Below, piece after piece: positions 30,725 through 55,554 of a DNA stretch of 64,000 nt. The notes under the pieces were generated by a model that made no database searches, was not told where the DNA came from, and saw only the letters and a program-made list of their open reading frames with translations. The translations under genes and the position numbers were made by a program. The stretch comes from Nitrospira sp. (GTDB taxonomy: Bacteria; Nitrospirota; Nitrospiria; Nitrospirales; Nitrospiraceae), in contig SWDN01000015.1 of the NCBI GenBank assembly GCA_005116775.1, forward strand, positions 1-64,000, given 5' to 3'. How positions within the stretch are numbered: position 1 is the first letter of the stretch; every line of letters starts with the position of its first letter.

Positions 30725-30758
30725 CGACGTCGTTGTCGCCGCGCACGCCATTGTGCGC
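30725..30758 (-). ncRNA. Tandem hexaloop hairpin module B in the porin leader, candidate ANTAR target
   Basis: Minus strand GCGCAC-AATGGC-GTGCGC GG CGAC-AACGAC-GTCG, about 57 nt upstream of the porin start. Confidence 0.65.
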
Positions 30759-30947: not shown

Positions 30948-30989
30948 AACAAAATAAAACGTCCTCTAGCCCCGCTGGGACTGGAGGAC
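30948..30989 (-). terminator. Intrinsic terminator in the porin leader, overlapping a hexaloop hairpin
   Basis: Minus strand GTCCTCCAG-TCCCAGCGGGG-CTAGAGGAC followed by GTTTTATTTTGTT. Confidence 0.8.
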
Positions 30990-31045
30990 GCCATTGTCCA
31001 TTATTCCGAACTATGAGAGGCCGGTGGGAAACGCCGTTGTTCCCC
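30985..31045 (-). ncRNA. Dual hexaloop hairpin module A (candidate ANTAR-responsive antiterminator) in the porin leader
   Basis: Minus strand GGGGAAC-AACGGC-GTTTCCC (31045-31026) then GGAC-AATGGC-GTCC (30999-30986); the second overlaps the terminator 5' arm. Confidence 0.75.
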
Positions 31046-39227: not shown

Positions 39228-40955
39228 TTAGAACAGGAAATACCGCTGCGCCATCGGCAATACGGCCATGGGGTCACATTTCAAGATTTGCCCGTCGGCT
39301 TTCACCACATAGGTTTCCGGATCGACCTCAATGCGCGGCAACGAATCGTTCAGTTTCATATCGCGCTTGCCGATCCCACGGCATTGCTTCACCGCCGCCA
39401 CGTGTTTCTGCAACCCGAGCGACTTATGCACCTCGTGCTCTATTGCGGCTTTTGAAAGAAACGTCAGGCTCGTAGAAAACGGCGCGCGGCCAAAGCTTCC
39501 GAACATGGGTCTGGTCAAGACCGGCTGCGGCGTTGGGATAGACGCATTCGGATCTCCCATGGCGGCAGACATGGGGAAGCCACCCTTTAAAACTATTTCA
39601 GGCTTCACACCGAAAAAAGCGGGCTTCCACAGGACGAGATCCGCCAACTTACCGACTTCGACTGAGCCCACTTCGTGCCCGATGCCGTGCGCAATCGCCG
39701 GATTGATCGTGTACTTTGCGATATAGCGCCGCGCACGGAAATTATCGTTCGCACCGGACAACTTTTCCGCTGCGGTCTGCGACAGATGTCCTCGCTGCAC
39801 TTTCATTTTGTGCGCCGTCTGCCACGTGCGAATAATGACTTCGCCCACGCGCCCCATCGCCTGTGAGTCGGACGACATGATGCTGATCGCCCCCATGTCG
39901 TGCAGGATATCCTCCGCTGCAATGGTCTCGCGGCGAATGCGCGATTCAGCAAAGGCGATATCCTCCGGCACACGAGGATTTAAATGATGACAGACCATGA
40001 GCATGTCAAGATGCTCGTCCATCGTATTCACCGTGAACGGCATCGTGGGATTTGTGGACGAGGGCAATACGTTGGGCTCACCGCAGACCTTGATGATGTC
40101 GGGAGCATGCCCCCCACCGGCGCCTTCCGTATGAAACGAGTGAATCGTCCGTCCTTTGAACGCTTTAATCGTATCTTCGACAAACCCTGCTTCGTTCAAC
40201 GTATCGGTGTGGATGGCGACTTGGACATCGAATTCTTCCGCGACATCGAGGCAGGTTGAAATCGCCGCCGGCGTGGTGCCCCAGTCTTCGTGCAACTTGA
40301 GCCCGATGGCACCGGCCTCGACCTGTTCGCGAAGTCCCTCCGGCAATGATGAATTGCCCTTCCCGAGAAAACCAAGATTGATCGGGAACCCATCGGCCGC
40401 TTCCAACATACGATGGATATTCCATGCACCAGGCGTGCAGGTTGTAGCATTCGTGCCAGTCGCTGGGCCGGTCCCACCACCGATCAATGTGGTCATTCCG
40501 TTTGCTATCGCTTCCGTGATGATCTGCGGACAGATGAAATGAATGTGCGTGTCGATACCACCCGCCGTGATGATCTTGCCTTCAGCCGAAAGCACTTCGG
40601 TACAAGCGCCGACCTCCATTCCTTTCGTCACACCTTCCATCAAATCAGGATTCCCGGCCTTGCCGATACCGAAGATGCGCCCCTCACGGATACCGATGTC
40701 GGCTTTGACGATTCCCCACCAATCGATGATGATCGCATTGGTAATCACGAGGTCGAGCGCGCCCTTCGCGCGAGTGGCCGCAGGCGATTGTCCCATGCCG
40801 TCGCGGATGACCTTGCCTCCTCCGAACTTGGCCTCTTCACCGGGCACTGTCAGATCGCGCGTGATCTCGATCATGAGATCCGTGTCAGCCAGGCGAATGC
40901 GATCCCCCACCGTCGGTCCGTAGAGGTCGTTGTATTGCCGCCGAGGAATCTTCAT
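39228..40955 (-). CDS. ureC: Urease subunit alpha
   Basis: 575 aa; [54 protein letters not shown]. Confidence 0.98.
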
Positions 40956-42038: not shown

Positions 42039-42749
42039 CTACACCGTCAAATACTGCTTCACCTGTTCCGCTGTCAACTCAGTACTTTTTCCCGCCACCA
42101 CCACCGCCCCTTTGGCCATCACCACATATTTCTCCGCTAGGCGAGCGGCAAAGTGGAGCCCCTGCTCGACCAACAAGATGGCGAACCGGCGCTGCTGTTT
42201 GAATCCAATAATGACATCTTCAATTTGATCTACGATCGACGGCTGAATGCCTTCCGTCGGCTCATCGAGCAAGAGCAGCTTGGGATTCGACAAGATTGCG
42301 CGGCCGATCGCCAGCTGCTGCTGCTCGCCGCCGCTCAAGACACCGCCCGGGCGATTGAGAATTTGTGTGAGCTTGGGAAAGAGGTGGTAGACTTCGTCGA
42401 ACGCGGTTTTCTCGACCGTCCCGTTCGGTCTGTCGGACCTTGCCCAAAATCCGAGCAACAAATTCTCCCGTACCGTCAAGTGAGGAAGAATCTCCCGGCC
42501 CTGTGGCACACAAGCCAACCCGCTGCGCGCTCTCTGATCGGTCGGCGCCTTCGTGACATCCTTCCCATCGAACAACATCCGCCCCGATCTCGCAGGCAAG
42601 AGGCCGGTCAATACTTTCAGCGTGGTCGTTTTGCCGACCCCGTTCCGGCCCATAAGACACACGACCTCTCCGGGGTCGATCGTAAAAGACACATCCCGAA
42701 GAATGTGGCTTTCACCGTAGTAGGCATTGATCTTGTCAAGTTGAAGCAT
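42039..42749 (-). CDS. urtE: Urea ABC transporter ATP-binding protein UrtE
   Basis: LDKINAYYGESHILRDVSFTI, MGRNGVGKTTTLKVL, LSGGEQQQLAIGRAIL. Confidence 0.95.
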   Translation of the reverse strand: MLQLDKINAYYGESHILRDVSFTIDPGEVVCLMGRNGVGKTTTLKVLTGLLPARSGRMLFDGKDVTKAPTDQRARSGLACVPQGREILPHLTVRENLLLGFWARSDRPNGTVEKTAFDEVYHLFPKLTQILNRPGGVLSGGEQQQLAIGRAILSNPKLLLLDEPTEGIQPSIVDQIEDVIIGFKQQRRFAILLVEQGLHFAARLAEKYVVMAKGAVVVAGKSTELTAEQVKQYLTV

Positions 42750-42832
42750 GGCGAATTCCGTGAAGCGTGAAACATGAAGCGTGAAATGTGAAATGCAAGA
42801 GAGATTGCGAGTTACACTTCACTATCCATCTG

Positions 42833-43159
42833 CTAATGAGCGACCTTTTGTCTACCTAAATAGATTTCCCTGACGCGATCATCTGCCTGCACTTTCTCGA
42901 CGGTGCCTTCGCAAATGACGGTGCCTTCGTGCAACACCGTCACAATGCGCGCGATCTGCCGGACGAATTCCATATCGTGTTCGATGACGATGATCGCGTG
43001 CTTCTCCGCCAACGATTGGAGCAATTGCCCCGTCTGTTCCGTTTCCTTGTCCGTCATCCCCGCGACCGGCTCGTCGACGAGGAGCAAGGAGGGGTCTTGC
43101 AAAATCACCATGCCGATTTCGAGCCATTGCTTCTGACCGTGCGACAGACCGCCACCCAA
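42833..43159 (-). pseudogene. urtD: UrtD, C-terminal part only (Walker A region absent)
   Basis: LSHGQKQWLEIGMVILQDPSLLLVDEPVAGMTDKETEQTGQLL...IVIEHDMEF; joined to urtC at about 43150-43160. Confidence 0.85.
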
Positions 43160-44046
43160 ATGACCATTTCAAGCGACGGCAGCACCCCGATCTGCGCCGG
43201 CGTGATGATGCCGACCTGCGGGGCATACAGCAACCCTGCCAATCCAGCTAGGCCCGCGGACACGACAAAGACGAACAGTTTGTAGTTGGGTGGCGTATAC
43301 CCGGAGAAAACGACACGCTTCTCGCTGTCCCGAACGGCAACCAGCACTCGACCGGCCCGCGAGCGAATGATCCACTGGCACAAGAAATAGGATGCGCCAA
43401 GGCAGAGCACGGTAATGATATACAATACTCGTTGCGTGCCTGGTTCGGAGAGCCGATACCCGATCACCTGCTTGAAATCGGTCAATCCGTTCGTGCCGCC
43501 GAGATTCGTATCGTTCCGATTGAAGACCAGCCAGGCGGCGAGAGCCAGCGCCTGCGTAATGATCGCGAAATAGACGCCTTTGATGCGGCTTCGAAAAGCG
43601 AAAAATCCGAATATCAATGCAAACGTCATCGGCACCAGGATCGCGCCAATGAGCGCCACAGGAAAACTGTGGAACGGTTTCCAGAACAACGGCAGCTCTT
43701 TCACCTGATTCCAGACCATGAAATCCGGCAGGTCGCTGCCATAGACGCTCTCTTTCCCGATCGTGAGCATCATGTGCATGCCCATGCAGTAGGCGCCTAA
43801 TCCGAAAAATACCCCTTGCCCCAAGCTCAAGATGCCGGTGTAGCCCCAGATAAGATCGAGTCCAAGAGCCAAAATTGCAAAGGCGAGAAATTTTCCGAAC
43901 CGGTTCAGGCTGAAATCGGAGAGGTGAAACCAGGAGTCTTCCGGCGGCAATATGTTCAGCGCCGGCATGACCAGAAGCAGAATGCCACCGACGACCCAGA
44001 AGCCTAGCCCTCCGCCGCGATTCTTGTCGGTTGTTCCTTCACTCAT
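43105..44046 (-). CDS. urtC: Urea ABC transporter permease UrtC, C-terminus lost at the junction with urtD
   Basis: LDLIWGYTGILSLGQGVFFGLGAYCMGMHMM...QIGVLPSLEMVIWVAV, then out-of-frame urtD sequence. Confidence 0.88.
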   Translation of the reverse strand: MSEGTTDKNRGGGLGFWVVGGILLLVMPALNILPPEDSWFHLSDFSLNRFGKFLAFAILALGLDLIWGYTGILSLGQGVFFGLGAYCMGMHMMLTIGKESVYGSDLPDFMVWNQVKELPLFWKPFHSFPVALIGAILVPMTFALIFGFFAFRSRIKGVYFAIITQALALAAWLVFNRNDTNLGGTNGLTDFKQVIGYRLSEPGTQRVLYIITVLCLGASYFLCQWIIRSRAGRVLVAVRDSEKRVVFSGYTPPNYKLFVFVVSAGLAGLAGLLYAPQVGIITPAQIGVLPSLEMVIWVAVCRTVRSNGSKSAW

Positions 44047-44165
44047 CGTCTTCTCTGTTCTCTGTTGGGGACAGGCATCGTTGCGGCTCGACTGCCTTCG
44101 ACAGGCTCAGGCCTCGAGCTTGCGAGAGGAGCTCGCCAAAGTCGGACGGTGGAGCCAGTCCCCCC

Positions 44166-45788
44166 TCAATCGGCATCTCGCCCCTTCATGGCAAACAATC
44201 CAGACGGCCGCCACTGCAGGAACAGAATCACCATCACGAGGATGAGGACCTTCCCGTACACGGCGCCGAAGCCAGGCTCGATTAGTTTGTTCAATCCGCC
44301 GATTCCCAGCGAGGCGACGATCGTGCCGGCCAGCTTCCCAACCCCGCCGGTGACCACCACCATGAAGGCATCGACGATATAGTTCTGACCGAGGCCTGGA
44401 TCGACATTCCCCACCATCGTGAGCGCCCAGCCCGCGATGCCCGCCAGCCCCGACCCGAAGGCAAAGGTGTAGGAATCGACTTTTCTGGTCGGGATGCCGA
44501 GACAGGCGCTCATATTCCGATTTTGGGTCACGGCCCGCACGCGTAATCCGAGATTCGATTTAAAGAGGGTGAAGTAAATCCCCAGCACGCAGACGATCGA
44601 GAGCGCGATGATGAAGATCCGGTTATACGGCAGGTAGACCCCGACCATGACTTGCGCGCCGCCTCGGAGCGGTCCTGGAGCGATCACAGCCGTGAGATCG
44701 CCGAAATAGACCCGGGCCGCCTGCATGAGGACCAAACTCACTCCCCAGGTTGCCAGCATGGTTTCAAGCGGACGTCCGTAGAGAAACCGGATGACCGTCG
44801 CCTCCAGCAGGAATCCTGAGCCGGCAGCCGCAAGAAACGCGACCGGCAATGCCACAAGAAAATACCAGCCAAAGACATCGGGCGAAAACCAGGACATGAA
44901 ACATTGCTGTGTGACAAACGTTGCATAGGCGCCGACCATCATCAGCTCGCCATGGGCCATATTGATGACGCCCATCAACCCAAACACGATCGCCAGACCC
45001 AGCGACATGATCAAGAGGATTGAACTAAGGCTGATTCCACGGAAGATCGTTTCAATCGCGTTCGCCCAGTCGCCCCAGGTTTCAATTCGGTCAATCGCGG
45101 CATCGGCGGCCTTCGCCATGGCCTTCTGCTGTTCGGTCGCTTCTGCTACAGCACCAGCCGCGACCAGTTCCTTCAAGGCGGGCACCCCATTCTGACTATA
45201 GAGTTCGCCGAGCATCTCAGCTGCGGCAGCTTTGATCGACGGGTCGTCCGATGCCAACTTGATCAGCGCCGAAGACTCTTCCATCGTATAGCGCACCCAC
45301 TTATTCGACTCATTCACCTTGGCGGCATCCAGCCACGGAATCGCCAAGGGATTCCCGGAGGAGCCGAGATCCGTCGCCGCCGACCGGCGAACATCGCTGT
45401 CGGGGCTGGCGAGTTTCGCCCGATTCTTGAGGAGATCCATCAGCGGCTTGATGGCCTGCCGGATGCCTCGGCTTGCATTGGCTCGGATCTCCTCCAACCG
45501 AGGAACCAGAGTGGCATCGCCCTGTTCGAGCAATAGACGAATTGCCGCGTTGCGGACGGATTCGTCCTCGCTGCTAACCTGGTTGAGCGCTTGTTCTAGG
45601 GAAGAAGAGACCGAGGGAGAAGAGACGGGAGGCCCATCCGCTGCGATCGTCCAACTCTGCCAGGAACACAACACCAGTCCTACCATACCGAGAACTGTCA
45701 CGAGGCGGCACAGAGATAGGGTCATGACGGTACATACTCCTTCACAAGACACACGAATAACGTAGACCTCCAGTCTCGCCAACTGCAT
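44166..45788 (-). CDS. urtB: Urea ABC transporter permease UrtB (start uncertain)
   Basis: VFGLMGVINMAHGELMMVGAYATFVTQQCF, TQNRNMSACLGIPTRKVDSYTFAFGSGLAGIAGWAL. Confidence 0.95.
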   Translation of the reverse strand: MQLARLEVYVIRVSCEGVCTVMTLSLCRLVTVLGMVGLVLCSWQSWTIAADGPPVSSPSVSSSLEQALNQVSSEDESVRNAAIRLLLEQGDATLVPRLEEIRANASRGIRQAIKPLMDLLKNRAKLASPDSDVRRSAATDLGSSGNPLAIPWLDAAKVNESNKWVRYTMEESSALIKLASDDPSIKAAAAEMLGELYSQNGVPALKELVAAGAVAEATEQQKAMAKAADAAIDRIETWGDWANAIETIFRGISLSSILLIMSLGLAIVFGLMGVINMAHGELMMVGAYATFVTQQCFMSWFSPDVFGWYFLVALPVAFLAAAGSGFLLEATVIRFLYGRPLETMLATWGVSLVLMQAARVYFGDLTAVIAPGPLRGGAQVMVGVYLPYNRIFIIALSIVCVLGIYFTLFKSNLGLRVRAVTQNRNMSACLGIPTRKVDSYTFAFGSGLAGIAGWALTMVGNVDPGLGQNYIVDAFMVVVTGGVGKLAGTIVASLGIGGLNKLIEPGFGAVYGKVLILVMVILFLQWRPSGLFAMKGRDAD

Positions 45789-45835: not shown

Positions 45836-47224
45836 CTATTTTTGATAGGTCCCTTGATGACCGACCCAGTCGCAGCCCTTGTCTGGATTGGTAAATTCGC
45901 TCCAGGGTTCCGGCTTCACCAGTCCCGGTGAACGGGAAACCACCTTGAACTGCCCGTCCGCCAGGATCTCACCGATGAGCACCGGTCTATAGGTGTGGTG
46001 ATTGGCAGCATCCATCATAATCTCGCCGCCCGGCGCCAGGAACTTGCTGCCATAGACCGCCTTTCGGACCTTGTCGACATCAGCCGTCCCGGCCTTTTCG
46101 ACTGCTTGCTTCCAGATATACACACCAAAATAGGCGGCTTCGATCGGATCGTCCGTGACCCGCTTGTCTCCGTCCGGCAGGTTGTTCTTCTTACAGTAGG
46201 CCTTGAAATTCGCCACGAACTGCTTATTTTGCGGCGTATCCACGCTTTGATAATAGTTCCACGCAGCCAGATGCCCGACCAGCGCGGACGTGTCCATCCC
46301 GCGCAACTCGTCTTCCGCCACGCTGAAGGCCATGATTGGAGCGTCTTCGGCCCGCAACCCTTGGTTCGCAAACTCCTTGTAGAACGGCACGTTGCTGTCG
46401 CCGTTGATCGTGCTGATCACGGCGGCCCCTCCGCCTGCGGCGAATTTTTTCAGCTTGCCGCAGATGGTTTGGTAGTCCTGATGGTGGAACGGCGTGTACT
46501 CTTCCATAATCTTGTCCGCCGGGACTTTCTTCGCCAGGAGCATCGCTCTCAAAATCTTGTTAGTGGTGCGAGGATAGACGTAATCGGTCCCGAGCAGATA
46601 GAACTTCGTAAACCCGCCACCCTCTTTGCTCATCAGATAATCCACCGCCGGCACAGCCTGCTGGTTCGGCGCCGCTCCCGTGTAAAAGACATTGCGCGAA
46701 CATTCTTCTCCCTCATACTGCACGGGATAGAATAGTAAGCCGTTGTTCTTCTCGAACACCGGCAGAACGGACTTGCGGCTGACCGAGGTCCAACAGCCGA
46801 AGGTGACCGAGACCTTATCCTGCAGCAGCAGCTGCTTGGCCTTTTCGGCAAAGAGATCCCAATTCGAGGCTGGATCGACGACGACCGGCTTGATCATCCG
46901 GCCCATCACCCCGCCTTTGGCGTTGATCTCTTCCACCGCCATCATCACTGTGTCGCGGAGCGACACTTCGCTGATGGCCATCGTGCCGCTGAGCGAATGC
47001 AGGATACCGATCTTGATCGGCTCCTTATCCGCCGCATAGGACAGGGCCCAGTTGCCCAGGTTGCCGAGCAAAGCGGCAACCCCTATGCCGGCCACGACCT
47101 TGCCGCCTTTCACCAAAAGCTCACGCCGCGAGGAGCCCGCCTCAGGCGCAGCATCCGTACCCGGCTCAGCCGGGTTGTTCTCGTCGGGTTTGTTCGTTGC
47201 CATGATCGGACTCCTTTCACTCAC
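45836..47224 (-). CDS. urtA: Urea ABC transporter substrate-binding protein UrtA
   Basis: IKIGILHSLSGTMAISEVSLRDTVMMAVEEINAKGGVMG, FGCWTSVSRKSVLPVFE, LLFYPVQYEGEECSRNVFYTGAAPNQQ. Confidence 0.96.
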   Translation of the reverse strand: MSERSPIMATNKPDENNPAEPGTDAAPEAGSSRRELLVKGGKVVAGIGVAALLGNLGNWALSYAADKEPIKIGILHSLSGTMAISEVSLRDTVMMAVEEINAKGGVMGRMIKPVVVDPASNWDLFAEKAKQLLLQDKVSVTFGCWTSVSRKSVLPVFEKNNGLLFYPVQYEGEECSRNVFYTGAAPNQQAVPAVDYLMSKEGGGFTKFYLLGTDYVYPRTTNKILRAMLLAKKVPADKIMEEYTPFHHQDYQTICGKLKKFAAGGGAAVISTINGDSNVPFYKEFANQGLRAEDAPIMAFSVAEDELRGMDTSALVGHLAAWNYYQSVDTPQNKQFVANFKAYCKKNNLPDGDKRVTDDPIEAAYFGVYIWKQAVEKAGTADVDKVRKAVYGSKFLAPGGEIMMDAANHHTYRPVLIGEILADGQFKVVSRSPGLVKPEPWSEFTNPDKGCDWVGHQGTYQK

Positions 47225-47298
47225 AAGTAAGTGTTGTGTCAGCTCGACCGAAAGAACACGTCGCTATAAAACTTCTCTCAACCACCCCACTGTTTTAA

Positions 47299-47485
47299 TA
47301 CTGTAGTTGCAACGCCAGATTGAAAGAATCTTGATGCGGACCTCCCGCAATGGCGCCGCGTGTCGTAGGCCCACCAGCAGGGGCCAGACTGCCAGTCCGC
47401 CAGAATGCCGAGATGCGGGCATTGTGACCGCTAATGACGTAGTTCGTGCCAAATTCAAATTCATCGAGTGCGCTGGTGCCCTAGG
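47299..47485 (-). pseudogene. C-terminal remnant of an OprP/FmdC-like porin upstream of urtA, boundaries approximate
   Basis: Own minus translation, stop then GTSALDEFEFGTNYVISGHNARISAFWRTGSLAPAGGPTTRGAIAGGPHQDSFNLALQLQY*. Confidence 0.65.
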
Positions 47486-47619: not shown

Positions 47620-48264
47620 TTACTCCGATGCCAGAAGTCCATGGACAAGGGCATACTTTGTCAGCTCCGCCGTCGTGTGAAGATCGAGCAGCCCCATGAT
47701 CTGCGATTTATGAAACTCGACGGTCTTTGGTGAAAGAGTAAGGATCGACGCAATCTCTTTGACTGTCTTCCCTTCAGCGACGAGCTGCAAGACTTCTCGC
47801 TGGCGCGCAGTCAAGGACTTGTCCCTCAACACCGCCGGCATCCTCCCTGTAATAGCCGACTGCACCAGACCTTTGGCGACCAAGGGAGTCACATAGCATT
47901 GTCCGGTCATGACTGATTGGATAGCTTGGAGCAATTCTGACCCGGCGGATCGTTTGAGCAGATAGCCGGAGGCGCCAGCCTTGAACGCTTCATTCACATA
48001 GGCTTGATCGGCGTGCATCGTCACGAAGATCAGCTTGGTGCGAGGCAATATTTTTTTCAACCTCCTCGCGGCATCGATCCCATTGAGCTCCGGCATCGAG
48101 ATATCGAGAGTGGCAATGTCCGGTTGAAGTTCCTGGGCCATTCGAAGCAACGTACGGCCATCCTCCGCCACGCCGACGATCTCACATTCATCTTCCAAGA
48201 GCTTCCGGAACCCGTCCAATACCAGCGTATGGTCGTCGCCCAACAGAACTCGAGGCTTACTCAT
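47620..48264 (-). CDS. NarL/FixJ-family response regulator
   Basis: RVLLGDDHTLVLDGFRKLLEDE; LTARQREVLQLVAEGKTVKEIASILTLSPKTVEFHKSQIM. Confidence 0.95.
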   Translation of the reverse strand: MSKPRVLLGDDHTLVLDGFRKLLEDECEIVGVAEDGRTLLRMAQELQPDIATLDISMPELNGIDAARRLKKILPRTKLIFVTMHADQAYVNEAFKAGASGYLLKRSAGSELLQAIQSVMTGQCYVTPLVAKGLVQSAITGRMPAVLRDKSLTARQREVLQLVAEGKTVKEIASILTLSPKTVEFHKSQIMGLLDLHTTAELTKYALVHGLLASE

Positions 48265-50498
48265 ATCGCCCCCTCTGGAACGAGCACTACCACTTGCACC
48301 TTCGTTCCCTTCCCCACTGCGGACACGACATGCAAGTTCCCCTGAACCAACGCGACTCGCTCTTTCATGCCGAGCAGCCCCAGCCCATGCGATCCGTTCC
48401 TCGGTTGGTCCGAATCGAACCCCACTCCATTATCTGTAATCGTCATCACCAGCTCAGTGTGATTTCCGGTCAGTTCCACATCGACGCGAGTGGCCTCTGC
48501 ATGGCGAACCACGTTGTTGAGACTTTCTTGCGTGACGCGATAGAGACAGCTCGCGATCTCCTGAGGGACGGTTGGAGGCATATTCCTGTGTCCAAAGCTC
48601 CCTTGGATATGGCTTCGAGCGGTGACGTCTTCCACCAACCGTTGCAACGCGATCGGAAGGCCGAGGTCATCGAGAATGGAGGGGTGAAGCTGATAGGCCA
48701 AGTGCCGCACCACATCGGACAACTCCACAACCCGATCTTGTATCTCTTGGACGGCCCGGCCCACGTGATCTGTTGGGGAATCAAGCCTGCGTCCCACCGC
48801 TTCAATATCCATGGCAAGAAGCGCGAGCCGTTGATTGATGTCATCGTGCAAATCGCGTGAAATTCGGCGACGCTCATCTTCCTGTACACGCAACAACTCG
48901 AATGCCAACTTCTGCAAGTCTTGCCTGCTGCGCTCAAGCGATACCTGAGTCTGTATCCGCTCGGACACTTCCGCAACCAGTGACTCGTTCACGGTGGCCA
49001 ATTCCTCTGTTCTCGCCTGCACACGCCTATCCAACGCCTCATTGAGCCGTTGCAGCTCCTCTTCGTGCGCGCGGCTCTGCTGCTCCGTCAGCCTCCGCGC
49101 CGAGATATCCCGCACGAACGCGCTGAACGTGTAGACGCTTCCTTGCCCCAAGGATGGGGAAATGGCCAACTCTATCGGAATCTCTCGCCCATCGCGATGC
49201 ATGCCTGTGATTTCGACCCTGGTGTTCAGGATCGGTCCTACGCCGGTCGCGAGGAAGCGACGTAATCCCTGCTCATGGGCTTCCTGATGCTGCGCAGGGA
49301 TAATCGTCGCGGAGAGGGGCCGCCCGATGGCCTCTTGCCTGGGCCAGCCGAATATCTGTTCCGCTTGAACGTTCCAGTCGGTGATCGTGCCGACGGCATC
49401 CATCCCGATAAAGCCATCGAGCGCCATTTCGACAATGTTCCGCGTGTGCGCCTCGCTCTTACGCAACGACGCTTCAGCATCCCTGGCAAGCGCACGCTCC
49501 TGCTGCGCCCGCCGATATTCCTTCTTCACGCGGGTCACGGTCCATACTAGGAGACCAAACGCCGGAACCACCACGGCGCCGCCAGCCAGGCCAAGATTCC
49601 AGAGGACTTCTCGAATCGGCGCCAGCACATCGCGCCGATCCATGCGCATGAGCACCGTCCAGTGCAGACTCTCAACACTGCCATCATGGCTCAGTGTTCT
49701 GGCATAGCCGGTAATGACCGGCACATGGCGACGCTTGTGCTCTTCCTCGACGTAGCCGAACAGAGACTGTTCGCTCAACAGCACCGACGGAAGGCGAAGT
49801 TGTTTGAGATTGACGTTGCCTTTGTGGTCGAGATCGGAGTCGATAAAAGCAATCCCCTTCTCGGTCAGAAACTGGTATTCCAAGGCGCCCCAAAATCCTT
49901 CCCGCTGCCGAAACGCCAGAAGGGTCCTCGTCATGACGTCTTCAAGTCCTGGAATCCCCACCCTTGTCGTCACCACCCCCTGGAATTCCCCGCGTGGGCC
50001 GGTGATGGGAGCTGTCACGGCTATGGCGTCAGGACCACCCATCACTGCGAATGGCTCTACGTCCCCCATATGAACCCCTTGCCCTTTGCGCACGGCTTGA
50101 AACCAAGACTCGGAGCTGTAGTCGCGTCCCACCGTGTCCGGGTCTGTGGCGACGACAATCTTTCCTCGCTCGTCTGTCGCGCCAATCCATAAATAGTCCG
50201 GGTACGCGGCCCTCACCCCTGCGATATAGGCCGACTGAAATTCCTGATTGTTCGATTGCACGCTGAACGTCTTCGCCATCATCAGCACATCGCCGTGCCG
50301 TTCAACGAGGAATCGATCCAGCTTGTCCGAGACTTCAGCGGCTGTTTGAGCGAGGGTTTCGCCTGCTGTCGCCACCATGCGGGTTTCGACATAACGGAAC
50401 GCCAGTGTGCCGATGGTCAACATGACAACCGTCAGCACGCCGATAAGGACCGGCAGCCAGGAATAGGGGCGAGGAGCCGTGGCTTCAGGCATGGTCAT
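48261..50498 (-). CDS. Sensor histidine kinase: Cache-like periplasmic sensor, PAS, NarX-type kinase
   Basis: DYLWIGATDERGKIVVATDPDTVGRDYSSESWF; PAS DGFIGMDAVGTITDWN; EDERRRISRDLHDDINQRLALLAMDIE; ITDNGVGFD. Confidence 0.92.
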   Translation of the reverse strand: MTMPEATAPRPYSWLPVLIGVLTVVMLTIGTLAFRYVETRMVATAGETLAQTAAEVSDKLDRFLVERHGDVLMMAKTFSVQSNNQEFQSAYIAGVRAAYPDYLWIGATDERGKIVVATDPDTVGRDYSSESWFQAVRKGQGVHMGDVEPFAVMGGPDAIAVTAPITGPRGEFQGVVTTRVGIPGLEDVMTRTLLAFRQREGFWGALEYQFLTEKGIAFIDSDLDHKGNVNLKQLRLPSVLLSEQSLFGYVEEEHKRRHVPVITGYARTLSHDGSVESLHWTVLMRMDRRDVLAPIREVLWNLGLAGGAVVVPAFGLLVWTVTRVKKEYRRAQQERALARDAEASLRKSEAHTRNIVEMALDGFIGMDAVGTITDWNVQAEQIFGWPRQEAIGRPLSATIIPAQHQEAHEQGLRRFLATGVGPILNTRVEITGMHRDGREIPIELAISPSLGQGSVYTFSAFVRDISARRLTEQQSRAHEEELQRLNEALDRRVQARTEELATVNESLVAEVSERIQTQVSLERSRQDLQKLAFELLRVQEDERRRISRDLHDDINQRLALLAMDIEAVGRRLDSPTDHVGRAVQEIQDRVVELSDVVRHLAYQLHPSILDDLGLPIALQRLVEDVTARSHIQGSFGHRNMPPTVPQEIASCLYRVTQESLNNVVRHAEATRVDVELTGNHTELVMTITDNGVGFDSDQPRNGSHGLGLLGMKERVALVQGNLHVVSAVGKGTKVQVVVLVPEGAI

Positions 50499-50699
50499 AT
50501 TCCTTTTCGCTCATTGCGCCATCACATCAGGCATAACGAGACGATTCACTGACCAACATCCATGACACGCCTCGATACACAGAGCAGGAATATTCAAATC
50601 CATGCCCGTGAACGATGTTCGTGCCTTGCGCTCGGAGTACCGCGAAGAGCTTTGCTGTGGCAGGGGGAAAGGCCCTTCCGGTCATCCGTCTGTGCCGAC

Positions 50700-50760
50700 A
50701 GGACGCCATTGTCCTTTTCTTATATTCCGGCTGAATCGATGGACGTCGTTGTCCATCGAC
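50700..50760 (-). ncRNA. Dual hexaloop hairpin module in the kinase leader, candidate ANTAR target
   Basis: Minus strand GTCGATGGAC-AACGAC-GTCCATCGAT (50760-50735) and AGGAC-AATGGC-GTCCT (50715-50700); loops 40 bp apart. Confidence 0.7.
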
Positions 50761-50784
50761 TCGACCTGTGCAATTGAGGGGTGT

Positions 50785-50813
50785 ATCTTCGGAGTCTCCT
50801 GCTCTCCTGTCAA
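50785..50813 (-). promoter_or_regulatory. Possible sigma-70 promoter for the kinase leader
   Basis: Minus strand TTGACA (50813-50808), then about 17 bp and GAAGAT; -10 is weak. Confidence 0.45.
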
Positions 50814-50829
50814 GTGGTCGCTGTTCGGT

Positions 50830-52178
50830 TGTAGATAGCACATCATCTGTCCGGTTTAGGGTGGTCCCTCTAGGAGGGCCACTATGACGCGGGCACGGGT
50901 ACTACAGGAGGTGAGACAGATGCGGTTCGAGGAGCTCTATGAGCGGCGGCAGCAACGGATCTTGACGATGGCGGAGGCTGGCGAGATGCTGGGCGTAACC
51001 GAGCGGACCTTTCACCGCTGGAGTGGGCGCTATCATACGGAGGGGGCCGAGGGGTTGCAGGATCGACGGATCGGCCGGCTCTCGGGTCGCGCGGTGCCGG
51101 TCGACGAGGCGTTGCGTATGGTGACGTGGTATGAGACCCGGTACACCGGCTGGACCGTGAAGCATTTCCATGAGCGCTGGCAGACCGAGCATGGCGGGAG
51201 GCGGTCGTATAGCTGGGCCAAGAAGACGTTACAGGCCGCGGGACATGTGGTCCGGGCGCCCCGACGAGGGGCCCATCACAAGAAGCGACCTCGCAAACCC
51301 TTGCCGGGCATGATGCTGCACCTAGACGGCTCGACCCATGAGTGGGTGCCCGGCTGTCAGTGGGATTTGATCGTGACGCTGGATGATGCGACCAGCGAGC
51401 TCTATTCCGCTTTCTTCGTCGAAGAAGAAGGGACCCTGAGTAGCCTGCGCGGTCTGCGGGAGGTCATCGGGACGAAGGGGCTATTTAGTTCGCTCTATAC
51501 GGATCGGGGCTCCCACTACTGGCACACCGACGAGGCTGGAGGGAAAGTAGACAAGACCCGGCTGACGCAGGTGCATCGCGCCTTGCAGCAGTTGGGGGTG
51601 ACGCTGATTCCGGCCTATTCACCGGAAGCACGAGGCCGGTCGGAGCGCGCCTTCCGGACCCTACAGGACCGGCTGTCCAAAGAGCTGGCCCTGGGGGATC
51701 ACCGAGATGGCGGCGGCCAACCGGTACCTGACCGAGCGGTTCCTCCCCCAGCATAACAAGCGGTTTATGGTGCGGGCGACCGAACCGGGCACCGCCTTTA
51801 TCCCATTGGTCGGCCCGCACCTCGCCGAGATCCTCTGTGTGCAAGAGGAGCGGGTCGTGGCCAAGGACAACACCGTGCGGTATCAGGGCCTGAGCCTGCA
51901 GATTCCGCAGGATCCGCATCGGTTCCATTATGTGCAGGTCACGGTGCGGGTCCACGCCTATCCGGACGGGACCTTGGCCGTGTTCCATGGCCCCCGGTGT
52001 TTAGCCCGCTACCACGCGGAGGGCCAGCTGATCGAGACCGGACAGGCCCACCCAGGCCCGACCCACAGTCGAACGTTCCGCCGATCGTTCATCCTAGGCC
52101 AACGGTACGCGACAGAATTTCGGCGCACGGCTGAAAGACTCGAAGAGAAGAACCGGACAAGTTAACTTGCTATCTACA
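50830..52178 (+). mobile_element. IS1202-like (ISNCY) insertion sequence, 1349 bp
   Basis: Ends TGTAGATAGCA..TGTCCGGTT in inverted orientation; flanked by identical 16-bp GTGGTCGCTGTTCGGT (50814-50829 and 52179-52194). Confidence 0.85.
50884..52165 (+). pseudogene. IS1202-like transposase with a frameshift at about 51690-51700
   Basis: Frame 1 ends LSKELALGDHRDGGGQPVPDRA; the other frame continues PWGITEMAAANRYLTERFLPQHNKRFMV; GGGGG run at the shift. Confidence 0.8.
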
Positions 52179-52260
52179 GTGGTCGCTGTTCGGTCACTCT
52201 CGTGGAGGGATGCCGGTGTCCTCGCCCAATCAGTTATGCTAGACTACCCATCGGCATACA

Positions 52261-53202
52261 TTGTACGAGTCGGCTATGTCTCATTATCCACGGTTCGCGT
52301 ATCTCCTCTTTGCCGGAATGACTCTGGTCTTGTCTGCCTGCGCGACGGGACCTGATCTAGACCTCACGCTCCATGAGTCCGATCGCGGAACGGTGTACGT
52401 GGAACGGATTCCCGATCGGTCTTTTCAAGCCGCCCACCCCGTTACAGTATCGGCAGAGACGATGGCTCGTGTCCTTCGTGGTATCGTCGTCCAAGATGGC
52501 CGAGGGATCGTGGGGAAGCCGGCCGTCGGCAAACCGGAGGCCGTTCGAGCATTTGGGGACGACGATGTTGAATACCTGGCTCCGCTCCTGGCCGAAGGGC
52601 TCACCAGAGCCGCATCGGACCAACAGGTCGGCTTTCGTGTCGTCAAAATCGGCGCACCGACCCAATTGCAATTCGCCGGAGCGGTCTTTTGTGTATCCGA
52701 TGTCCGTTCCCCCGGTGTCTGTGAGTCAGAACAGTCAGAGGCAAAAACATCCATTGAAGCGACGGGTGGTTCGCTCTATGCCTACAATCGATCGCTGTAT
52801 CTAACCTTGACCGAGTATCGCCACCGGACCGATCGAACCGAATCGACAAGCATGGCTCATCGGCAACCTTTCAATCTATCCGGATTGTCCAACCGCACGG
52901 TGCACTTCATCCCGGAATCCGCAAAACGGCCGGATACCTATCGAACCGCGCGCACAACGGACGCCACTCTCATGATCGACTACAGCCTACTTGCCACTAT
53001 GCCTGCTGCATTGGATCTGCGACCGACGTCTGCTCAATCGCCGATGCCTACGAAGGGAGCTCCCACTCAACGAGATGCCGATGTGGACGAGCTTCGGAAG
53101 GAGATGCAAGAGATCAAGAAGAAGCTTGCCGACCAAGAAGAGGAGCGGATACGTTCCACCTCCTCAACCGCTCCAAAGCCTGCACCTCGATCGACTCCTT
53201 AG
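52261..53202 (+). CDS. Putative lipoprotein, paralog 2 of the family
   Basis: LSAC lipobox; RGTVYVERIPDRSFQAAHP, LAPLLAEGLTRAASDQQVGFRV, GSLYAYNRSLYLTLTEYR, ESAKRPDTYR, C-terminal coiled coil. Confidence 0.78.
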   Translation: MYESAMSHYPRFAYLLFAGMTLVLSACATGPDLDLTLHESDRGTVYVERIPDRSFQAAHPVTVSAETMARVLRGIVVQDGRGIVGKPAVGKPEAVRAFGDDDVEYLAPLLAEGLTRAASDQQVGFRVVKIGAPTQLQFAGAVFCVSDVRSPGVCESEQSEAKTSIEATGGSLYAYNRSLYLTLTEYRHRTDRTESTSMAHRQPFNLSGLSNRTVHFIPESAKRPDTYRTARTTDATLMIDYSLLATMPAALDLRPTSAQSPMPTKGAPTQRDADVDELRKEMQEIKKKLADQEEERIRSTSSTAPKPAPRSTP

Positions 53203-53356: not shown

Positions 53357-54253
53357 GTGTCGATTATGCTAGACTGCGGGGCGATCCACCTTTCAAGGCC
53401 TACGATGTCTCATCGTCCACGACTCGCTCTTGCCCTACTGACTGGAATTACCTGGGCCTTGTCTGCTTGCGCGACAGGACCTGAGTTGGACCTCAGAATA
53501 CATGAGTCAGACCGCGGAGCGGTGTACGTGGAACGAATTCCCGATCGTTCGTTCCAAGCCACTCACCCCATCACGGTATCGGTAGATACGATGGCCCGGG
53601 TTCTTCGCGGCGTGGCCGCCAAGGAGAACCGAGGGCTATTCGGAAACTTGATCATTGGACGGCCGGAAGCCGTTCCGGTATTTAGGGACGAGGATGTTGG
53701 GTTCCTGGCGCCGCTCCTCGTTGAAGGACTCGCTAGGGCTGCATCGGACCAGCAGGTAGGATTTCGCGTCGTTCAACCGGAGGTGACGGAATCGACACGA
53801 GGCTCACTCTATGCTTCACGACAGTCCCTGTACCTGACTGTACCCTGGCTCATCTCACTCTCCAGGAATGGAGCCGACGAGCCAACGCTACCACCCACCG
53901 TTATCTTTACCCCTGAGTCGGCAAAACGGCCGGACAGTTATCGTGACGCGTGCTCGACCGAAATGACACTGGTCATCGACTATGGCCTACTCGCGTCACT
54001 CTCCGCCGATTCAGAGGCGCCATCACCAGTTCACGTCCTCACCGGTGAACCAGCGGCTCTGACTGGACGAACCACCGCTCCGGCGCCGACAACGGAGACA
54101 CTGCAAACGCCTACTCAGCCTAGCGAGCGTGAATGGAATGACATGAGAAAAGAGCTGCGCGATCTCAAACGGCAGTTAGCCGGGCAGGAAGCTGAACGAA
54201 CGCCGCAGAAGCACAATGGATCTTCCAAGCAGACCCAGCCGGTGACTCCTTAA
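53357..54253 (+). CDS. Putative lipoprotein, paralog 3 of the family; start may be the internal MSHRPRL
   Basis: LSACATG lipobox; RGAVYVERIPDRSFQATHP, LAPLLVEGLARAASDQQVGFRV, ESAKRPDSYR, LVIDYGLL. Confidence 0.78.
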   Translation: MSIMLDCGAIHLSRPTMSHRPRLALALLTGITWALSACATGPELDLRIHESDRGAVYVERIPDRSFQATHPITVSVDTMARVLRGVAAKENRGLFGNLIIGRPEAVPVFRDEDVGFLAPLLVEGLARAASDQQVGFRVVQPEVTESTRGSLYASRQSLYLTVPWLISLSRNGADEPTLPPTVIFTPESAKRPDSYRDACSTEMTLVIDYGLLASLSADSEAPSPVHVLTGEPAALTGRTTAPAPTTETLQTPTQPSEREWNDMRKELRDLKRQLAGQEAERTPQKHNGSSKQTQPVTP

Positions 54254-54288: not shown

Positions 54289-55554
54289 TTATCCCCGATG
54301 TTTCTCAGCCCGCTGGTCGAGCTCTCCGGCCAAGAGCACGGCCTCGGCTATTTCACGCATCGATTTCCTGAAATCCATGCTCTGCCGCTGGATAAGCTTG
54401 AAGGCCTCTTCTTCGGTTAATTTCTTCGAGCGCATGAGATAGCCTTTGGCCCGCTCCATGAGCTTCCGAACGGCCAGGGCCTCCTGCATCTCGTGAGACT
54501 TCTCGATCAAAGTCGTGTGCTCAATGGCAATGGCGGCCTGATTGGCGATCGCCTGAAGCAACTTGACCTCTTCGCTGGTGAAGACGTGCGGAGCGGATGT
54601 GTAACTATTGATCACGCCCAGCGCTTTATCCCGCACCATCATCGGAACCGACAGCAAGGAGCACAGCCCTTCCTTCTTGGCCATCTCCGGATACATATAG
54701 TCTCGCTCTGTGGACACATCGAGCACGATGATCGGCCGGCGTTCTTTCACGGCGCGGCCGATGATACTCTGCCCAACCTTCAGGTTCGGCTTGCGGCGAT
54801 ATTGTTCGCTGAGGCTTTGTGTCGAGGCGATTCGCAGCTCCCCGCTGGCTTCGTCCAAAAGCATGATCGAGCAGATCTTGGAGTTCATCATTTGCGCAGT
54901 CATGGTCACCAACAGCTCAAGCACATCTTTGATCAACCGGTTGGACGCCACCGTTTCCGAAACTTGCGACAGCGTTTCCACCTGTAAGGCTTTGCGTTGC
55001 ATTTGATCGTAGAGCCGCGCATTTTCGATCGCCCCTCCGACTTGATTGGCGATGGTCGAGAGCAGCGCAATCTCATCGGGCTGATAGCGTTTGGGACGCT
55101 TATGTTGGACATTGATCACACCGACCACTTCTTTTTTAGCCATAATCGGAACAGACACAAAGGCTTGATAGCGGTCTTCAGGAAGGTTGTGAAAGAACTT
55201 GAACCTCGGATCGTCGTTCGCATTACTCGGAATGATCACGCGCGTCCGCTCCTGAGCGACCCACCCGGTGATGCCTTCTCCTAAGCCGATCGTAATGCGG
55301 CCAATCAGTTTCGGATGAGGGTTTTTCGACGCCCGAAGAATCAGTTCATCTTGGCTGTCCGACAAGAGATAGAGAAGGCAGGCATCCGCCTTCGTAACCT
55401 CGACGACGACGTCGACGATATGTTTGAGAATCGCTTCGAGATCCAGCTGGTTGCTGATCGACGCAGAAATCCGATGGAGCACATCGACTTCGCGTGTTTT
55501 TTCGCGCAGTGCCTGCTGGAGGTGAGCCACAGATAGCGTACGTTTGGTCGTCAT
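54289..55554 (-). CDS. GAF-GAF-ANTAR protein, candidate RNA-binding antitermination regulator
   Basis: Two GAF-like regions (VDVVVEVTKADACLLYLL...; MMNSKICSIMLLDEASGELRI...); C-terminal EALAVRKLMERAKGYLMRSKKLTEEEAFKLIQRQSMDFRKSMREIAEAVLL is ANTAR-like. Confidence 0.88.
   Translation of the reverse strand: MTTKRTLSVAHLQQALREKTREVDVLHRISASISNQLDLEAILKHIVDVVVEVTKADACLLYLLSDSQDELILRASKNPHPKLIGRITIGLGEGITGWVAQERTRVIIPSNANDDPRFKFFHNLPEDRYQAFVSVPIMAKKEVVGVINVQHKRPKRYQPDEIALLSTIANQVGGAIENARLYDQMQRKALQVETLSQVSETVASNRLIKDVLELLVTMTAQMMNSKICSIMLLDEASGELRIASTQSLSEQYRRKPNLKVGQSIIGRAVKERRPIIVLDVSTERDYMYPEMAKKEGLCSLLSVPMMVRDKALGVINSYTSAPHVFTSEEVKLLQAIANQAAIAIEHTTLIEKSHEMQEALAVRKLMERAKGYLMRSKKLTEEEAFKLIQRQSMDFRKSMREIAEAVLLAGELDQRAEKHRG

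What the first reader, a model, noticed from the sequence alone, without database searches (positions are those of the whole stretch)
50700..50760. Second dual-hexaloop leader upstream of the sensor kinase beside the urea locus
Minus strand GTCGATGGAC-AACGAC-GTCCATCGAT (10-bp stem allowing one G-U) and AGGAC-AATGGC-GTCCT, loops 40 bp apart. The loops match the porin leader while the stem arms differ yet stay complementary, an internal covariation signature. An alternative hairpin (CGTcCTGT-CGGC-ACAGACG) overlaps the second hexaloop, but I see no clear T-tract, so the mode of control here is open.
Basis: partly seen in the sequence, partly recalled or inferred. Interest (0 to 1): 0.75.

Follow-up and report, generated by a model that had tools for sequence, protein, structure and literature searches.

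The report
ANTAR-type RNA leader, urea-uptake operon
The short stretch before the sensor-kinase gene is a real twin-hairpin RNA switch of the known ANTAR kind, one of a set that appears to control nitrogen-uptake genes in Nitrospira bacteria, but in this copy the built-in transcription stop signal has largely decayed.

Summary
On the minus strand, 50762-50733 (P1, 12 bp, loop AACGAC) and 50715-50700 (P2, 5 bp, loop AATGGC) form a dual hexaloop with loops 40 nt apart. The strict twin pattern occurs only three times in the genome: here and twice in the porin leader. The only ANTAR protein found in this 70%-complete genome (GAF-GAF-ANTAR, 54289-55554) lies 3.5 kb away. Across 175 genomes of the family, a covariance model of such leaders finds strong hits in 101/104 ANTAR-positive and 9/71 ANTAR-negative genomes. 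Stems covary (0/500 shuffles); loop position 4 is always G. Targets are nitrogen genes: urea uptake, ammonium transport, NAD synthetase, nitrite reductase. So this is an ANTAR-target leader. In relatives it heads a kinase-regulator-porin-UrtABC gene run; ancestrally it is the urea-transport leader. There it overlaps a textbook terminator (dG about -24, U8-11). Here the arms remain (GTCC...GACCGGAAGGGC, dG -11) but the U-tract is CUUUCCCCC. Hexaloop cores still diverge several-fold less than flanks, so binding is probably kept while attenuation is weak or altered. A new member of a known kind; I found no paper describing ANTAR RNAs in Nitrospira.

The parts
50808..50813 (-). -35 box TTGACA of the predicted leader promoter
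   Evidence: Zero pairwise divergence over TTGACAGG in nine kinase-leader orthologues; read directly
50785..50790 (-). -10 box GAAGAT (GAATAT or GAGAAT in relatives), 17-nt spacer; TSS inferred near 50778
   Evidence: Alignment; TSS is inference
50733..50762 (-). P1 hairpin, 12-bp stem with hexaloop AACGAC at 50745-50750; lower stem extends toward 50766/50729
   Evidence: pairs covary across 37 leaders
50700..50715 (-). P2 hairpin, 5-bp stem with hexaloop AATGGC at 50705-50710
50672..50704 (-). Homologue of the overlapping intrinsic terminator hairpin (GTCCTGTCGG...CCGGAAGGGC); its 5' arm is the 3' arm of P2
   Evidence: dG -11.0 here against -19 to -28 in intact urt leaders; 3' arm conserved (divergence 0.06)
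50662..50671 (-). Decayed U-tract (CTTTCCCCCT)
   Evidence: U-tract score 1.49 against 3.1-6.3 in urt leaders with intact terminators
48261..50498 (-). Sensor kinase (dCache, PAS, HisKA_3, HATPase); start at ATG 50498 or 50492
   Evidence: Pfam; orthologues
47620..48264 (-). LuxR-type response regulator
   Evidence: Pfam
47298..47462 (-). C-terminal remnant of the urea-locus porin (residues 407-459 of 459 of the G137 porin)
   Evidence: tblastn
45836..47224 (-). UrtA, urea ABC transporter substrate-binding protein
   Evidence: TIGR03407 576.9 bits, above its cut-off
42039..45788 (-). Urea transporter permeases and ATPase (UrtB 44166-45788, UrtC 43105-44046, UrtE-like 42039-42749)
   Evidence: Pfam, gene order
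54289..55554 (-). GAF-GAF-ANTAR protein, the only ANTAR protein found in this genome; proposed ligand of the leader
   Evidence: PF03861; sole genome hit
30951..31045 (-). Porin leader: twin hexaloop (AACGGC, AATGGC) overlapping terminator 30960-30990 with U-tract 30951-30959
30725..30758 (-). Second, compact twin (AATGGC, AACGAC; loops 18 nt apart) just before the porin start; no terminator
   Evidence: conserved in relatives
50814..52194 (.). Insertion sequence (ISNCY/IS481-like), element 50830-52178, flanked by a 16-bp direct repeat; abuts the -35 box

Best explanation
It is an ANTAR-target leader RNA at the head of a urea-uptake gene run (leader, kinase, regulator, [porin, lost here], UrtABC). 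Transcription is expected to start just upstream of P1. A dimer of the neighbouring GAF-GAF-ANTAR protein is expected to bind hexaloops P1 and P2. In homologous leaders, stabilised P2 excludes a terminator that shares its 3' arm, so binding would permit read-through (antitermination). In this copy and its close relatives the terminator has weakened (imperfect hairpin, no U-tract), so the genes probably read through at a sizeable basal level and ANTAR binding has a reduced or altered effect. Shown by sequence: twin hairpins, covariation, co-occurrence with the ANTAR gene, conserved promoter-like boxes upstream of P1, homologous terminator and its decay, low divergence of the hexaloop cores. Inferred: physical binding, co-transcription, the signal sensed, and the regulatory outcome.
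For: Pattern specificity. Covariation of 64 double-sided cells against 24.3 in shuffles, 0/500. Model hits in 101/104 ANTAR+ against 9/71 ANTAR- genomes, and within one genus 14/14 against 3/65, Fisher 5e-13. Seven of the nine exceptions are less than 90% complete. Loop position 4 is G in every scored loop; position 1 is A in 51/52 P1 loops and A or G in P2. Terminators overlap P2 in nearly all urt, porin-Amt and NadE leaders. In kinase leaders P1 and P2 core divergence is 0.06 and 0.05, against 0.18 in the linker and 0.31-0.38 in flanks. Synteny points to a urt-leader origin. G153 keeps a kinase-side leader with a T6 terminator plus a remnant of the porin N-terminus.
Against: No binding or expression data. 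P2 alone is weak: in the folded window leader its pairs have probability about 0.1. Loop spacing (40 nt here; median 42 in the family) is longer than in the eut leader, where lengthening the linker abolished antitermination (PMC3369931, PMC8934654). Three syntenic orthologues lack the leader upstream of the kinase and one has decayed hairpins. The ANTAR co-occurrence is somewhat inflated because the model was built mostly from ANTAR+ genomes.
Confidence: 0.68

Rival explanations
1. The kinase leader is a vestige: a former urt attenuator inherited when the two-component genes came to sit next to it, now without function; control has passed to the kinase-regulator pair.
For: U-tract lost in all close relatives with the kinase-side leader except G153; leader absent upstream of the kinase in G134, G135 and G147, broken in G141.
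Against: Hexaloop cores and the terminator 3' arm diverge about 3 to 8 times less than linker and flanks, and loop A1/G4 are unchanged in all retained leaders.
Confidence: 0.2
2. ANTAR binding acts here without an intrinsic terminator, for example on Rho-dependent termination, RNA stability or translation, using the P2 versus downstream-pairing switch (AAAAGG pairs with CCUUU).
For: Terminator decayed yet the elements are conserved; the tail after the hairpin is C-rich; the isolated fold of the window leader pairs the P2 5' arm with the CCTTT tail; Ramesh et al. discuss non-attenuation ANTAR targets near ribosome-binding sites (PMC3369931).
Against: About 180 nt separate the leader from the start codon; the AAAAGG/CCUUUU pairing shows no covariation by eye; no direct evidence for Rho.
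Confidence: 0.18
3. Chance hairpins, or a DNA-level inverted repeat for a DNA-binding regulator, rather than an RNA element.
For: P1 is a long inverted repeat that could be a protein-binding palindrome.
Against: Twin arrangement, loop conservation, stem covariation, placement between promoter and gene, same-strand overlap with terminators, ANTAR co-occurrence.
Confidence: 0.03

Closest known systems
ANTAR-target dual-hexaloop leaders (E. faecalis eutP, K. oxytoca nasF, P. aeruginosa amiE)
   Same: Two tandem hairpins with hexanucleotide loops, A at position 1 and G at position 4, AC..GU closing pairs, P2 overlapping an intrinsic terminator in homologues, nitrogen-metabolism targets (PMC3369931).
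   Different: Loops are about 42 nt apart (linker 14-36 nt) against a 5-12 nt linker in eut; in this copy the terminator has decayed; the protein is GAF-GAF-ANTAR rather than REC-ANTAR (EutV) or the nitrate-sensing NasR.
Multi-operon ANTAR regulons (e.g. Desulfotomaculum acetoxidans)
   Same: Several leaders per genome; that survey lists PII, ammonium and urea transporter and nitrite reductase genes among targets (PMC3369931).
   Different: Here a single ANTAR gene sits beside its targets, and this leader heads a gene run that starts with a two-component system.
Similar leaders in other Gram-negatives (Pseudomonas and others)
   Same: The same AC-AAYGRC-GT hexaloops followed by terminators were found in Pseudomonas, Ferrovum, Paucibacter and Desulfobacterales contigs.
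   Different: Shorter loop spacing in those (about 26 to 36 nt).

Membership tests
ANTAR-target RNA | Two tandem stem-loops, at least 3 bp each, with hexanucleotide loops | tested here: met
ANTAR-target RNA | A at loop position 1 and G at position 4 in both loops | tested here: met
   AACGAC and AATGGC; G4 invariant across matches
ANTAR-target RNA | Conserved closing pairs AC..GU | tested here: met
   Both hairpins; invariant in 37 leaders, although these were mostly chosen by that pattern
ANTAR-target RNA | ANTAR protein encoded in the genome | tested here: met
   co-occurrence
ANTAR-target RNA | Short linker (5-12 nt in E. faecalis eut) | tested here: not met
   17 nt here with the long P1 stem; 14-36 nt in the family.
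ANTAR transcription attenuator | Intrinsic terminator overlapping P2, with U-tract | tested here: not met
   Hairpin homologue present (-11.0) but U-tract decayed here; met in the window porin leader and most relatives
ANTAR-target RNA | Binding by an ANTAR dimer | not testable with these tools
   Needs EMSA or SPR

The most novel reading that the evidence does not exclude
A GAF-GAF-ANTAR protein reads long-spaced hexaloop pairs, and in the kinase-headed urea-uptake genes of one Nitrospira lineage the ANTAR leader has been kept under selection while losing its terminator, so it regulates by a mode other than intrinsic antitermination during a hand-over of control to an adjacent two-component system.
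Probability: 0.2. Interest if true: 0.7.

Novelty: new member of a known kind. Interest (0 to 1): 0.5.

Why it matters
Nitrospira (nitrite oxidisers, including comammox; general knowledge) are central to the nitrogen cycle. If true, one RNA-binding protein coordinates urea, ammonium, nitrite and NAD-synthetase genes through leader RNAs, which gives a predicted regulon and sites that can be tested directly. The kinase leader also records an attenuator losing its terminator next to an inserted two-component system.

Tried and rejected
A general helix between the two hexaloops: present in a few leaders (e.g. L075 from G009, L104 from G151) but not general (mean z -0.43 over 53 linkers). Restriction of the loop sequence to Nitrospira: rejected, since the same loops with terminators occur in Pseudomonas and others; many other hits of the collection scan look like coding repeats. 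Rfam: no ANTAR or attenuator family reached gathering score; the only hit, 5_ureB_sRNA at 40511-40809(+), lies antisense to ureC and probably reflects coding similarity. Literature: no paper in the library links ANTAR or antitermination with Nitrospira regulation; the supplementary tables of the 2012 survey could not be read, so an earlier listing there cannot be excluded.

Full report
OBSERVATION. The minus strand carries GGTCGAGTCGATGGAC-AACGAC-GTCCATCGATTCAGCC and AAAAGGAC-AATGGC-GTCCTGTC exactly where stated. P1 has 12 continuous pairs, P2 has 5, and the loop starts are 40 nt apart. All six hexaloops of the three twin sites in the window fit AC-AAYGRC-GT. This 10-mer occurs 7 times in the window against 0.47 expected. 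The twin pattern occurs three times in the 2.67-Mb genome, all on this contig: the kinase leader and two places in the porin leader, with zero for the reversed control.

SURROUNDINGS. The genes downstream are a dCache-PAS-HisKA_3 kinase, a LuxR-type regulator, then UrtA (TIGR03407 above its cut-off), permeases and an ATPase, and urease. Upstream lie an ISNCY/IS481-like element with a 16-bp direct repeat that ends at the -35 box, two paralogous genes of unknown function, and the only ANTAR protein found in this 70%-complete genome, a GAF-GAF-ANTAR protein. The window also holds glutamine synthetase, GlnD, two GlnE-like genes and an ammonium transporter.

RELATIVES. Of 175 genomes of the family, 58 have the strict twin and none has the reversed control; 104 have an ANTAR domain, nearly always one. 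Downstream genes are the urea-locus porin with UrtABC, the BBP2 porin with Amt-PII-GlnD-GS, NadE, NIR_SIR nitrite reductase, NMT1_2 substrate-binding proteins, Amt, and a protein with a cyanate-lyase domain.

STRUCTURE. On 37 leaders the two stems pair in 90.5% of cells (shuffled 78.4%), with 64 double-sided changes against 24.3, 0/500 shuffles. Only the inner pairs were fixed by the selection pattern; the covariation is in the outer pairs. A covariance model finds E below 1e-8 in 101/104 ANTAR+ and 9/71 ANTAR- genomes. In genus g16 it is 14/14 against 3/65. The threshold was chosen after seeing the scores; the strict pattern alone gives 54/104 against 4/71. Among 53 model matches, many not fitting the strict pattern, loop position 4 is G in every scored loop; position 1 is A in 51/52 P1 loops, and A (34) or G (16) in P2.

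KINASE LEADER. Among syntenic kinase orthologues the twin is intact upstream in G149, G150, G136, G140, G139, G148, G151 and G153, and lies about 750 nt upstream in G137. It is decayed in G141 and absent there in G134, G135 and G147. In G135 and G147 a leader instead sits directly before UrtA. TTGACA-N17-GAAnAT lies upstream of P1 and the -35 is invariant in nine species. P1 and P2 core divergence is 0.06 and 0.05, against 0.18 for the linker and 0.31-0.38 for flanks.

OPERON ORIGIN. In most relatives with this leader the porin gene follows the regulator gene and precedes UrtA; the window keeps only its last 53 residues (47298-47462). In genus g14 and others a leader of the same type, beside the ANTAR gene and a homologous flanking gene, sits before a porin-sized ORF (not itself identified by Pfam) and UrtABC without kinase genes. 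G153 has leader, a remnant of the porin N-terminus, then kinase and regulator; G137 has two leader copies and a duplicated fragment of the regulator gene. The simplest reading, an inference, is that the leader is ancestrally that of the urea-uptake genes and the two-component genes were inserted between leader and porin.

TERMINATOR. Intact urt leaders have CGTCCTTTTGGTCC...GGACCGGAAGGGCG followed by T8 to T11 (dG about -19 to -28; U-tract score mostly 5-6.3). The window porin leader has -20.9 and 4.58. The window kinase leader keeps GTCC...GACCGGAAGGGC (-11.0) with CTTTCCCCC (score 1.49); close relatives are similar or worse; G153 keeps T6 (4.54). The terminator 3' arm is still conserved in this group (0.06), so some structural role may remain.

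MECHANISM AND LIMITS. By analogy with EutV, NasR and AmiR, ANTAR binding to P1 and P2 stabilises P2 against the terminator (PMC3369931, PMC8934654). The long loop spacing is a real difference: a 20-nt longer linker abolished EutV antitermination in vitro (PMC8934654), yet a median of 42 nt is the norm here (the strict pattern capped this at 46). Binding, co-transcription, signal and outcome are inferred. The model was trained on leaders mostly from ANTAR+ genomes, so the co-occurrence figure is somewhat inflated.

Noticed in passing
window 50814-52194: ISNCY/IS481-like element with ends TGTAGATAGCA..TGCTATCTACA and a 16-bp direct repeat ACCGAACAGCGACCAC; inserted exactly at the -35 box of the kinase-leader promoter, not seen at this place in the relatives examined.
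   Followed up: partly
window 47298-47462: Remnant of the C-terminus of the urea-locus porin; full-length in most relatives between the regulator gene and UrtA.
   Followed up: yes
window 30725-30758; L067 2426-2456; L278 5419-5449; L116 6020-6067; L279 4590-4620: Compact twin hairpins (loops 18 nt apart in the window) shortly before porin start codons in both porin types, without terminators; possibly control of translation. In the urea-locus porin the second loop starts with G.
   Followed up: partly
window 40511-40809 (+): Rfam 5_ureB_sRNA match antisense to ureC; probably coding-sequence similarity only.
   Followed up: no
window 52261-53202 and 53357-54253: Two paralogous genes (46% identical) of unknown family beside the ANTAR gene, with homologues next to the leaders in many relatives.
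   Followed up: no
L066 5756-5989; L281 2584-2724: G137 has two leader copies with a duplicated fragment of the regulator gene; G153 has a remnant of the porin N-terminus between leader and kinase.
   Followed up: partly
L098 6839-6885 (-): A twin leader with terminator upstream of a carbonic anhydrase gene on the strand opposite to the porin.
   Followed up: no
G071 and G118: Two nearly complete genomes without a detected ANTAR domain but with a strong leader match; orphan sites or a missed ANTAR gene.
   Followed up: no
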